DNA of 64,000 nucleotides from Hypoxylon rubiginosum. Lineage: Eukaryota; Ascomycota; Sordariomycetes; Xylariales; Hypoxylaceae. The position numbers and the translations under genes are program-made. The first letter of the stretch is position 1. Each line of letters opens with the position of its first letter. Below the pieces are notes generated by a model. The model worked only from the letters and a program-made list of their open reading frames with translations. It was not told the origin of the DNA and did no database searches. The stretch is from positions 806,001 to 870,000 of the forward strand of contig CADCXA010000053.1 in NCBI GenBank assembly GCA_902806565.1, read 5' to 3'. Below are positions 20,895 to 21,949 of this stretch, piece after piece.

Positions 20895-21949
20895 ATGAGT
20901 AGCCCCCGCAGACGAATCGAGACGGATGTAAGTTTCCGATCCCATATCCAGTCGCTTCGAAGCATACATAACTTACCATGGAACTTCGAACTAGGTCATG
21001 AAGTATGTTCTGTTTGTCCCCTACTTAGGGGGCTCTACTAACTCCGATGTAGGATGTAGGATCGCCTTCGCCGACGAACCTCTAGCTCCCTCACTAATTA
21101 TCCTAGGCTTATGTCCGACTACGAGGTAACTCTGGTCAACGACAATAGTAACCACCCCTTACTACTGTGCTTCCTCTAATATGTTACTAACGATGTCTTC
21201 ATAGTGTAAGCCGAACTACCTCGTAATATCGTCCTTTGTTCCCCCGAGTTCTCACGTACCTAGGCAAGAATTCTACGTCCGTTTCAAGGGACCGGCTGAG
21301 AGTTAGTACAGGCGATAAAGACAAGAAATTTTTGGCTGTGGCTTTCTCTAACTCGGCAGAATAGCACCATTCGAAAATGGCGTCTGGAAAGTGCACGTCG
21401 AGCTCCCCGACCAGTACCCGTATAAGTCGCCTAGTATCGGCTTTGTTAACCGCATATTCCACCCAAACATCGATGAGCTGTAAGTTTTGCTTCGGGGCCC
21501 CGGGGGATATACACAACATGGTTTTCGGATAAAGGTATAGGGGCAGCAAGACTGAAATGGGTTGAAAAAATCAGGTCGGGTTCGGTCTGTTTGGACGTCA
21601 TCAACCAAACTTGGTCGCCAATGTTCGACATGATCAACATCTTCGAAGTCTTCCTCCCGCAGCTCCTGCGATATCCCAACCCGGCGGACCCTCTCAACGG
21701 CGAAGCCGCCGCACTGCTGATGCGCGAGCCGAAAAGCTACGATGCGAAGGTCAAGGGTACGTTGATCATCCCCGATTCGAGAGACGTGGTCAGCTAAGAT
21801 AAGGGGCAGAATACGTTCAGAAGTACGCGAGTAAGGACGCGGCTGACGAAGGTGGTGCCGAGAGCGAAGACGATGACGACATGTCTTCAGTCGCGAGTTT
21901 CAGAGACGACGAGGAGGACGAGCTAGCTGGCCAGATGGACGACGTATAG
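20895..21949 (+). CDS. ubc8: ubiquitin-conjugating enzyme E2, Ubc8/UBE2H type, with 1-, 3- and 8-nt exons
   Basis: An E2 enzyme that carries ubiquitin on Cys85 (motif [13 protein letters not shown]). In yeast Ubc8 works with the GID ligase on gluconeogenic enzymes. Nine exons are proposed: 20895-20927, 20995-21002, 21053-21055, 21107-21147, 21205, 21264-21301, 21365-21479, 21575-21756 and 21810-21949. They total 561 nt and encode 186 residues. This model gives [17 protein letters not shown] and [15 protein letters not shown], collinear with yeast Ubc8 without gaps. All introns are 50-95 nt, AG/GT bounded. CTAAC or CTAAT branch-like boxes precede several acceptors. The C-terminus is an acidic Ser/Asp/Glu tail ending QMDDV, as in the family. 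Skipping the 3-nt exon, or replacing the 1-nt exon by acceptor 21268, keeps the frame but deletes or changes invariant residues, so automatic models may hide these exons. The gene faces saf4, which is convergent. Confidence 0.93.
20995..21002 (+). other. ubc8: ubc8 microexon, 8 nt
   Basis: GTCATGAA lies between CTAG and GTATGT. It encodes Val-Met and two bases of Lys14. Flanking introns are 67 and 50 nt. Confidence 0.85.
21053..21055 (+). other. ubc8: ubc8 microexon, 3 nt
   Basis: GAT lies between GATGTAG and GTAGGA. With the AA before it and the G after it, it writes AAG-ATG and restores the Met of VMKMLMSD. The upstream intron has its own CTAAC branch box (21037-21041) and the downstream intron has CTAAT near 21093. 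Confidence 0.75.
21205..21205 (+). other. ubc8: ubc8 candidate single-nucleotide exon
   Basis: A single T lies between CTTCATAG (with ACTAAC about 15 bases upstream) and GTAAGC. It joins A (21147) and G (21264) into the ATG codon of the conserved NDNMQEF. Flanking introns are 57 and 58 nt. Confidence 0.65.

What the first reader, a model, noticed from the sequence alone, without database searches (positions are those of the whole stretch)
20995..21264. Candidate 1-nt, 3-nt and 8-nt exons in a conserved ubc8 gene
The Ubc8 sequence can be matched residue for residue only with exons of 8 nt (GTCATGAA), 3 nt (GAT, 21053-21055) and 1 nt (T, 21205). Each is flanked by AG and GT, with CTAAC/CTAAT boxes ahead of the acceptors at 21052, 21106 and 21204. 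The introns become 67, 50, 51, 57 and 58 nt, the normal size in this window. All nine exons sum to 561 nt, an exact multiple of three. Simpler models (intron 21003-21106; intron 21148-21268) keep frame but lose the Met of VMKMLMSD and change NMQEF to NKF, positions conserved to yeast. Three consecutive microexons, one of a single base, would be extraordinary and invisible to automatic annotation.
Basis: partly seen in the sequence, partly recalled or inferred. Interest (0 to 1): 0.9.

Follow-up and report, generated by a model that had tools for sequence, protein, structure and literature searches.

The report
One-base exon in fungal Ubc8 gene
A gene for a conserved protein-tagging enzyme in this fungus can only be read correctly if it contains exons of eight, three and one DNA letters, and the enzyme's records from other filamentous fungi suggest the two smallest are old, widely shared and usually missed by genome annotation.

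Summary
Confirmed. The window holds a nine-exon ubc8 (UBE2H-type E2) gene at 20895-21949. A search of all GT-AG chains finds exactly one that encodes the first 93 residues, and it uses the 8-nt (20995-21002), 3-nt (21053-21055) and 1-nt (21205) exons. No RNA of this species was available; the main new evidence is indirect. Among 140 listed genome-annotated Pezizomycotina Ubc8 records, 115 have an indel at the 1-nt site and 86 at the 3-nt site, against 1, 4 and 4 at three ordinary junctions. At the 1-nt site, 0 of 48 fungal records outside Pezizomycotina and 0 of 71 uninterrupted, mostly cDNA-like ORFs have one. The wrong annotations fit the expected splice sites: NS for A|GT, NMY for AG|T|GTAY, DV[RC] and KMY for AG|GAT|GTAY. 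Records with indels at the 1-nt site come from six classes, including Pezizomycetes, so both tiny exons probably date to early Pezizomycotina. Single-nucleotide exons are already known (Arabidopsis APC11, plant VPS55, Fusarium CYP621A), so this is a new, unusually widespread member of a known kind. Likely mechanism: intron-defined splicing that removes the flanking short introns one after the other, leaving one base. Junction reads are still needed.

The parts
20895..20927 (+). ubc8 exon 1, 33 nt, [11 protein letters not shown], ends in phase 0
20928..20994 (+). intron 1, 67 nt, GTAAGT...AACTAG
20995..21002 (+). exon 2, 8-nt microexon GTCATGAA (V M K-)
21003..21052 (+). intron 2, 50 nt, GTATGT...CTAAC...TAG
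21053..21055 (+). exon 3, 3-nt microexon GAT (completes K14, opens M15)
   Evidence: relatives:
21056..21106 (+). intron 3, 51 nt, GTAGGA...CTAAT...TAG
21107..21147 (+). exon 4, 41 nt, ends with the A of codon ATG (M29)
21148..21204 (+). intron 4, 57 nt, GTAACC...CTAAC...CATAG
21205..21205 (+). exon 5, single nucleotide T, the middle base of codon ATG (M29)
   Evidence: relatives:
21206..21263 (+). intron 5, 58 nt, GTAAGC...CTCAC...CTAG
21264..21301 (+). exon 6, 38 nt, starts with the G of codon ATG (M29)
21302..21364 (+). intron 6, 63 nt (ordinary control junction)
21365..21479 (+). exon 7, 115 nt
21480..21574 (+). intron 7, 95 nt (ordinary control junction)
21575..21756 (+). exon 8, 182 nt, with SGSVCLDV (catalytic Cys, role recalled; aligned Cys in 2z5d)
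21757..21809 (+). intron 8, 53 nt (ordinary control junction)
21810..21949 (+). exon 9, 140 nt including the TAG stop, acidic tail

Best explanation
The locus is the only ubc8 gene found in this genome (the UBE2H-type E2, partner of the GID/CTLH ligase in yeast; that role is recalled). Its 5' part is cut into exons of 33, 8, 3, 41, 1 and 38 nt by five short introns. The 3-nt and 1-nt exons are probably constitutive and are needed for the conserved Met15 and Met29; skipping T breaks the frame. Inferred mechanism: each 50-58 nt intron is recognised as a unit (intron definition), so exon size is not limiting. The acceptor and donor around one base cannot both be occupied at once, so introns 4 and 5 (and 2 and 3) must be removed one after the other, each step being an ordinary splice between larger neighbours. 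The stretch 21148-21263 thus behaves like a complex intron removed in two steps that leaves one base behind. Shown: the unique splice model, no second copy found, the protein of relatives, and the position-specific failure of annotation across Pezizomycotina. Inferred: splicing in this species, the order of the steps, and the early Pezizomycotina origin.
For: Unique exact GT-AG chain; shuffle frequencies of 0.00065 (T) and 0.00005 (GAT) with branch box and donor. Splice signals in place. No other Ubc8 copy found in the 48-Mb genome: the three best hits are exons of this gene, the other eleven are at most 47% identical. Indels at the 1-nt site in 115 of 140 listed genome-annotated Pezizomycotina records, against 1, 4 and 4 of 140 at ordinary junctions, 0 of 48 outside Pezizomycotina and 0 of 71 uninterrupted ORFs (Fisher p below 1e-25, treating cluster representatives as independent). 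At the 3-nt site 86 of 140 against 1 of 48; at either site 125 of 140. Fingerprints of the boundaries: NDNS 51, NDNMY[VAG] 13, NDNKF 20, RQEF 48 of 140, each 0 of 119 in the two control sets; VM[KR][LM]MSD 45 of 140 (0 of 119), KMY 8, DDV[RC] 9 (the last two not counted in the controls). Uninterrupted ORFs P0063, P0105 and P0111 are 100% identical over the aligned core to genome records P0081, P0129 and P0189, which are broken at one or both sites.
Against: No RNA read of this species and no genomic DNA of any relative was available; the comparative case rests on protein records. Of the 25 of 140 Pezizomycotina genome records without an indel at the 1-nt site, 16 keep NM[QS]EF (10 keep both sites), 5 read NRQEF and 4 have other sequence in place of exon 4; whether the intact lineages lost the introns or were annotated correctly is unknown. 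Donor 4 (GTAACC) and branch box 5 (CTCAC) are weak. AG-T-GT alone is not rare (4.65% of shuffles). A strict one-base-exon signature is not enriched genome-wide (12 against 32 for the backward control).
Confidence: 0.95

Rival explanations
1. The simpler gene model is real: introns 21003-21106 and 21148-21268 are spliced whole and the protein reads VMKLMSD...NDNKFYVRF.
For: It keeps frame with GT-AG introns, and annotators of relatives chose the same forms: VM[KR][LM]MSD in 45 and NDNKF in 20 of 140 records.
Against: 0 of 71 uninterrupted ORFs and 0 of 48 records outside Pezizomycotina show either form. The same species gets different versions in different records, e.g. Beauveria bassiana P0011 and P0034, A. 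fumigatus P0122 and P0168 (names; sequences). It lowers the UQ_con score from 135.1 to 127.2 bits.
Confidence: 0.02
2. The single T is bridged otherwise: assembly or base error, a young frameshift, a decaying gene, or insertion editing of the RNA, with the AG-T-GT a chance match.
For: AG-T-GT alone occurs in 4.65% of shuffles.
Against: The same position fails in 115 of 140 listed genome records of many species. 13 of the 140 read NMY[VAG], as expected from AG|T|GTAYG. The rest of the gene is intact and conserved. The strict branch-acceptor-N-donor signature occurs only 12 times in 48 Mb, so one at this exact place by chance is unlikely.
Confidence: 0.01
3. The 116-nt stretch is a spliceosomal twin intron (stwintron) of the ascomycete type that leaves no base behind.
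For: Two abutting short introns; stwintrons are described in ascomycetes, many in Hypoxylaceae (PMC8469720, passages read; PMC9024468, search listing only).
Against: Removing everything joins A to GCAAG and shifts the frame into stops. A [D1,2] stwintron starts 5'-GGU, occasionally GGC (PMC8469720), but here the bases are A|GTAACC, and A21147 plus T21205 would give AT rather than GT.
Confidence: 0.02
4. The tiny exons are real but alternatively included, so that skipping GAT (minus one residue) or T (frameshift, decay) tunes Ubc8 output.
For: GAT is in frame and skippable; the Trichoderma Xlr2 microexon is regulated (PMC11121469, abstract).
Against: None of the 71 uninterrupted ORFs lacks the residue at either site, although ranking by score favours intact ORFs.
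Confidence: 0.1

Closest known systems
CYP621A single-nucleotide exon of Fusarium (PMC12940212; parts 1 and 2 of 3 read)
   Same: Nuclear fungal gene, one base between GT-AG introns inside a conserved motif, wrong in nearly all gene models; the authors call it the first in a fungal gene.
   Different: A rarely expressed P450 of one genus with base G; here T in a conserved E2, with a 3-nt and an 8-nt exon in the same gene and indirect evidence across Pezizomycotina. The CYP621A exon has SRA reads; this one has none.
APC11 single-nucleotide exon of Arabidopsis (PMC4674806; abstract and outline read)
   Same: Constitutive one-base exon in a ubiquitin-pathway gene.
   Different: Plant gene with a reporter-tested exon.
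1-nt microexons of APC11 and VPS55 in land plants (PMC8831610; passages read)
   Same: Deeply conserved one-base exons, missing from reference annotations, with RT-PCR support. The paper also shows two adjacent microexons (5 and 12 nt) in one rice transcript.
   Different: Plants; no gene with a one-base and a three-base exon together in the passages read.
Trichoderma virens Xlr2 microexon (PMC11121469; abstract and passages read)
   Same: Microexon in a filamentous fungus.
   Different: Regulated inclusion; no one-base exon is mentioned in the passages read.
Stwintrons of ascomycetes (PMC6616335 and PMC8469720; passages read)
   Same: Nested short introns removed by consecutive U2 splicing reactions.
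   Different: Stwintrons leave no base; here one (or three) bases remain and are translated.

Membership tests
Ubc8/UBE2H E2 enzymes | UBC core domain | tested here: met
   UQ_con 135.1 bits, cut-off 27
Ubc8/UBE2H E2 enzymes | Closest to Ubc8/UBE2H among E2s of solved structure | tested here: met
   Best hits 8pmq_E (242.6 bits; yeast Ubc8 by recall) and UBE2H (8pjn, 2z5d), then 2onu (210.2) and 1yf9 (190.5); the other E2s listed are at 102 bits or less
Ubc8/UBE2H E2 enzymes | Works with the GID/CTLH ligase | not testable with these tools
   Recalled for yeast; not tested
Single-nucleotide exons | One base flanked by AG and GT with usable introns on both sides | tested here: met
   CATAG|T|GTAAGC, introns 57 and 58 nt
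Single-nucleotide exons | Needed for the reading frame and a conserved residue | tested here: met
   Skipping it breaks the frame; the model is the only exact chain
Single-nucleotide exons | Conserved at the same place in relatives | tested here: inconclusive
   Strong but indirect: annotation failures in 115 of 140 records and NDNMY[VAG] in 13 of 140; no relative's DNA seen
Single-nucleotide exons | Junction-spanning transcript reads | not testable with these tools
   No reads of this species; 71 of 71 uninterrupted ORFs of relatives encode the Met
Stwintron [D1,2] | Starts 5'-GGU, rebuilds the outer donor and leaves no base | tested here: not met
   A|GTAACC at 21147-21153; full removal shifts the frame

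The most novel reading that the evidence does not exclude
The 1-nt and 3-nt exons of ubc8 arose before or early in Pezizomycotina, have been kept since across its classes, and form the most widely shared single-nucleotide exon known in fungi: a two-step complex intron that leaves one base, whose misreading corrupts most listed Ubc8 gene models of the group.
Probability: 0.75. Interest if true: 0.8.

Novelty: new member of a known kind. Interest (0 to 1): 0.72.

Why it matters
The one-base exons found in print here are a handful, with one in fungi described from one genus. A one-base exon plus a three-base exon in a core ubiquitin enzyme, probably kept across a whole subphylum, would show that the spliceosome can handle such exons reliably over very long times. 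It offers a natural system, in tractable moulds, to measure the order and fidelity of splicing at the smallest possible exon. It also means that most of the listed Ubc8 gene models in filamentous ascomycetes are wrong near the start of the protein, and that the pattern of such errors can be used to find more of these exons.

Tried and rejected
Relatives' DNA: the search for related loci gave no relative in viral contigs and only three distant prokaryotic E2-like loci in genome contigs (not used). By the tools' own descriptions no eukaryotic genome besides the window's own can be searched here, so the AG-GAT-GT and AG-T-GT islands could not be aligned as DNA. I turned to the errors in protein records instead.

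Genome-wide scan: the strict pattern CTAAC-N6..16-YAG-N-GTAAG occurs 12 times in the genome, one of them here, against 32 for the backward control. There is no excess, hence no sign of a large population of such exons. The other 11 places were not examined.

Fingerprint NDNRQEF (5 of 140: P0026, P0065, P0095, P0118, P0258) cannot be made by any canonical GT-AG joining I could construct. A plausible reading is cDNA-guided models in which the aligner placed the extra base on a neighbouring G; untested. These five keep their length and are not among the 115.

The count 'VMKY 9' includes P0192, whose N-terminus shown has no VMKY; I count 8.

Limits of the counts: they are of cluster representatives (90% identity), the best 120 per search in three searches (5577, 5603 and 5847 proteins passed the E-value), 262 distinct in all: 140 + 48 + 71 + 3 plant-labelled records (P0001, P0074, P0216) dropped before the counts. 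Intact proteins fall into fewer clusters than broken ones, so 115 of 140 is not the fraction of genomes. Assignment to Pezizomycotina or not was mine, from organism names; nine names were looked up. 'Uninterrupted ORF' means a record without an NCBI or UniRef source; most contigs are 0.9-3.3 kb. P0013 (7.3 kb) and the Taphrina-like P0197, P0198 and P0201 (17-119 kb) may be genomic, and two (P0036, P0260) list no contig length. 11 of 71 show an end gap at site A: four Pezizomycotina-like and seven Taphrinomycotina-like ORFs start at MKM.

In-print searches: 'ubc8' with 'microexon' and 'ubiquitin-conjugating enzyme' with 'microexon' and 'Ascomycota' returned no paper. The other searches gave listings, some capped far below the number of papers held (15 of 260, 12 of 26,079), and none of the listed titles or abstract starts names ubc8. 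The library lacks most subscription papers and bioRxiv.

Full report
WHAT WAS CHECKED. The window lies in a 48.3-Mb, 70-contig genome. Over the core, its Ubc8 is nearest to Xylaria hypoxylon (97.2%, P0032), an order Xylariales fungus. Nine exons of 33, 8, 3, 41, 1, 38, 115, 182 and 140 nt sum to 561 nt and give a 186-residue protein starting [36 protein letters not shown]. Skipping GAT gives VMKLMSD, skipping T with the acceptor 5 nt later gives NKF, and skipping T with the true acceptor gives a frameshift with stops. The protein scores 135.1 bits for UQ_con, the model without the tiny-exon residues 127.2. Its best solved relatives are 8pmq_E (yeast Ubc8 by recall) and UBE2H, with MQEF and LNEF at the place of the 1-nt exon.

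IS IT MORE THAN CHANCE. A search over all chains of up to nine GT-AG introns of 40-130 nt finds one, and only one, that encodes the first 93 residues; allowing GC donors adds none. The three simpler target proteins also have exactly one chain each. With the first 6 and last 20 bases fixed and the inside shuffled 20,000 times, AG-T-GT with both halves at least 45 nt appears in 4.65% of cases, with a branch box in 1.1% and with a good donor too in 0.065%. AG-GAT-GT gives 0.09%, 0.03% and 0.005%. So the T island alone would be weak evidence, but the full signal set is not. Donors are GTAAGT, GTATGT, GTAGGA, GTAACC and GTAAGC for introns 1-5. CTAAC 12 nt, CTAAT 10 nt, CTAAC 15 nt and CTCAC 10 nt (branch A to intron end) serve introns 2-5; donor 4 and box 5 are weak. 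A strict one-base-exon signature occurs 12 times in the genome, once here, and is not enriched over its backward control (32). No second Ubc8 copy was found: of 14 hits the first three are exons of this gene and the rest are at most 47% identical.

RELATIVES. Three protein searches, each listing the best 120 of over 5,500, gave 262 distinct cluster representatives: 140 genome-annotated Pezizomycotina, 48 genome-annotated fungi outside it, 71 uninterrupted ORFs without an NCBI or UniRef source (mostly contigs of 0.9-3.3 kb, hence cDNA-like), and 3 plant-labelled records that were dropped. Indels near each exon junction, counted against the model protein: Pezizomycotina genome records, exon 1/2 74, exon 2/3/4 86, exon 4/5/6 115, exon 6/7 1, exon 7/8 4, exon 8/9 4, each of 140. 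Outside Pezizomycotina: 0, 1, 0, 0, 0, 1 of 48. Uninterrupted ORFs: 13, 11, 0, 0, 4, 0 of 71; the 11 at site A are ORFs that begin at MKM. The exon 1/2 and 2/3/4 counting windows overlap, so the first number is not independent. 125 of 140 have an indel at site A or B. All 71 uninterrupted ORFs read NM[QSN]EF. Of the 49 nearest to Pezizomycotina records, 49 keep site B and 48 match M[KR][ML][LMF]MSD; the 49th has MKMLMND, also full length. Fisher tests for site B give p of 1e-26 (against the 48) and 4e-35 (against the 71), treating representatives as independent.

THE ERRORS SPELL THE SPLICE SITES. If exon 4 ends A|GT, reading through gives NDN-S: 51 of 140. If the one-base exon is AG|T|GTAYG, splicing into it and reading on gives NDN-M-Y-[VAG]: 13. 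Taking the acceptor five bases late gives NDN-K-F: 20. Reading through AG|G CAR gives RQEF: 48. These four occur in 0 of the 119 control records. At the 3-nt exon, skipping gives VM[KR][LM]MSD: 45 of 140, and 0 of 119. Splicing into AG|GAT|GTAY gives KMY (8), and joining exon 1 to it gives ETD-DV[RC] (9). The last two read the same DNA in two frames: Aspergillus carbonarius KMYAP (P0134) and A. fijiensis DVCAP (P0135) both fit GATGTATGC. The codon reasoning is inference, since no DNA of these species was seen. Records of one species differ from each other at just these places (Beauveria bassiana P0011 and P0034; A. fumigatus P0122 and P0168). Uninterrupted ORFs identical over the aligned core to broken records exist for Ilyonectria (P0063/P0081), Penicillium chrysogenum (P0105/P0129, broken at the 1-nt site only) and A. 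fumigatiaffinis (P0111/P0189).

HOW OLD. Records with an indel at the 1-nt site include Tuber (NDNSEQEF, Pezizomycetes), Geoglossum (Geoglossomycetes), Cenococcum (NDNSTQEF, Dothideomycetes), Drepanopeziza (NDNSKQEF, Leotiomycetes) and Xylaria (Sordariomycetes); in Eurotiomycetes A. tamarii reads NDNMYVPQEF. Two looked-up species, Dothistroma and Terfezia, read NDNRQEF: length kept, Met29 changed. Taphrina and the other outgroup records are intact at this site, 48 of 48. Taphrina-like ORFs of 171-172 residues, on contigs up to 119 kb, start at MKM and run on without a break, which suggests that those outgroup genes lack introns at the two sites. The simplest history is a gain before or early in Pezizomycotina. 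Against a uniform picture, 16 of 140 records keep NM[QS]EF at full length and 10 keep both sites; loss of introns or correct annotation could explain them.

HOW IT LIKELY WORKS. Introns of 50-58 nt suit intron definition, where donor and branch/acceptor pair across the intron and exon length matters little (recalled). Around one base, acceptor and donor cannot be bound at once, so introns 4 and 5 must leave one after the other; either order works on paper. The same holds for introns 2 and 3 around GAT. This makes the 116-nt stretch a complex intron akin in kinetics to a stwintron, but it is not one: a [D1,2] stwintron begins GGU and leaves nothing (PMC8469720, passages), while here A|GTAACC begins it and T must stay. 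These steps are inferred.

WHAT IS KNOWN. One-base exons are in print for Arabidopsis APC11 (PMC4674806, abstract and outline), APC11 and VPS55 across land plants (PMC8831610, passages) and Fusarium CYP621A (PMC12940212, parts 1-2 of 3), which calls itself the first in a fungal gene and quotes a median intron of 56 nt for F. graminearum. Direct searches for ubc8 or an E2 with microexons returned no paper, and the listings of seven further searches name no ubc8 case (some capped). I therefore rate it a new member of a known kind, notable for its apparent reach and for pairing 1-nt, 3-nt and 8-nt exons in one conserved gene.

LIMITS. No transcript of this species; no relative's DNA; cluster representatives rather than genomes were counted; record grouping by organism name was mine.

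Noticed in passing
window 21046-21063: GATGTAG is repeated head to tail (GATGTAGGATGTAGGATC) across the 3-nt exon; only the middle GAT has AG before and GT after it.
   Followed up: partly
G000 contigs C21, C22, C25 (two), C29, C30, C37, C42, C50, C55, C58: Eleven other places match CTAAC-N6..16-YAG-N-GTAAG; the total of 12 is below the backward control (32), so most are probably chance, but each could be tested as a one-base exon.
   Followed up: no
records P0026, P0065, P0095, P0118, P0258: Five annotated relatives read NDNRQEF, length kept but Met29 turned to Arg, which no canonical splicing of the expected sites explains; perhaps cDNA-guided models that could not place a one-base exon.
   Followed up: partly
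records P0197, P0198, P0201: Taphrina-like Ubc8 ORFs starting at MKM on 17-119 kb contigs run without a break, suggesting intron-free sites outside Pezizomycotina.
   Followed up: partly
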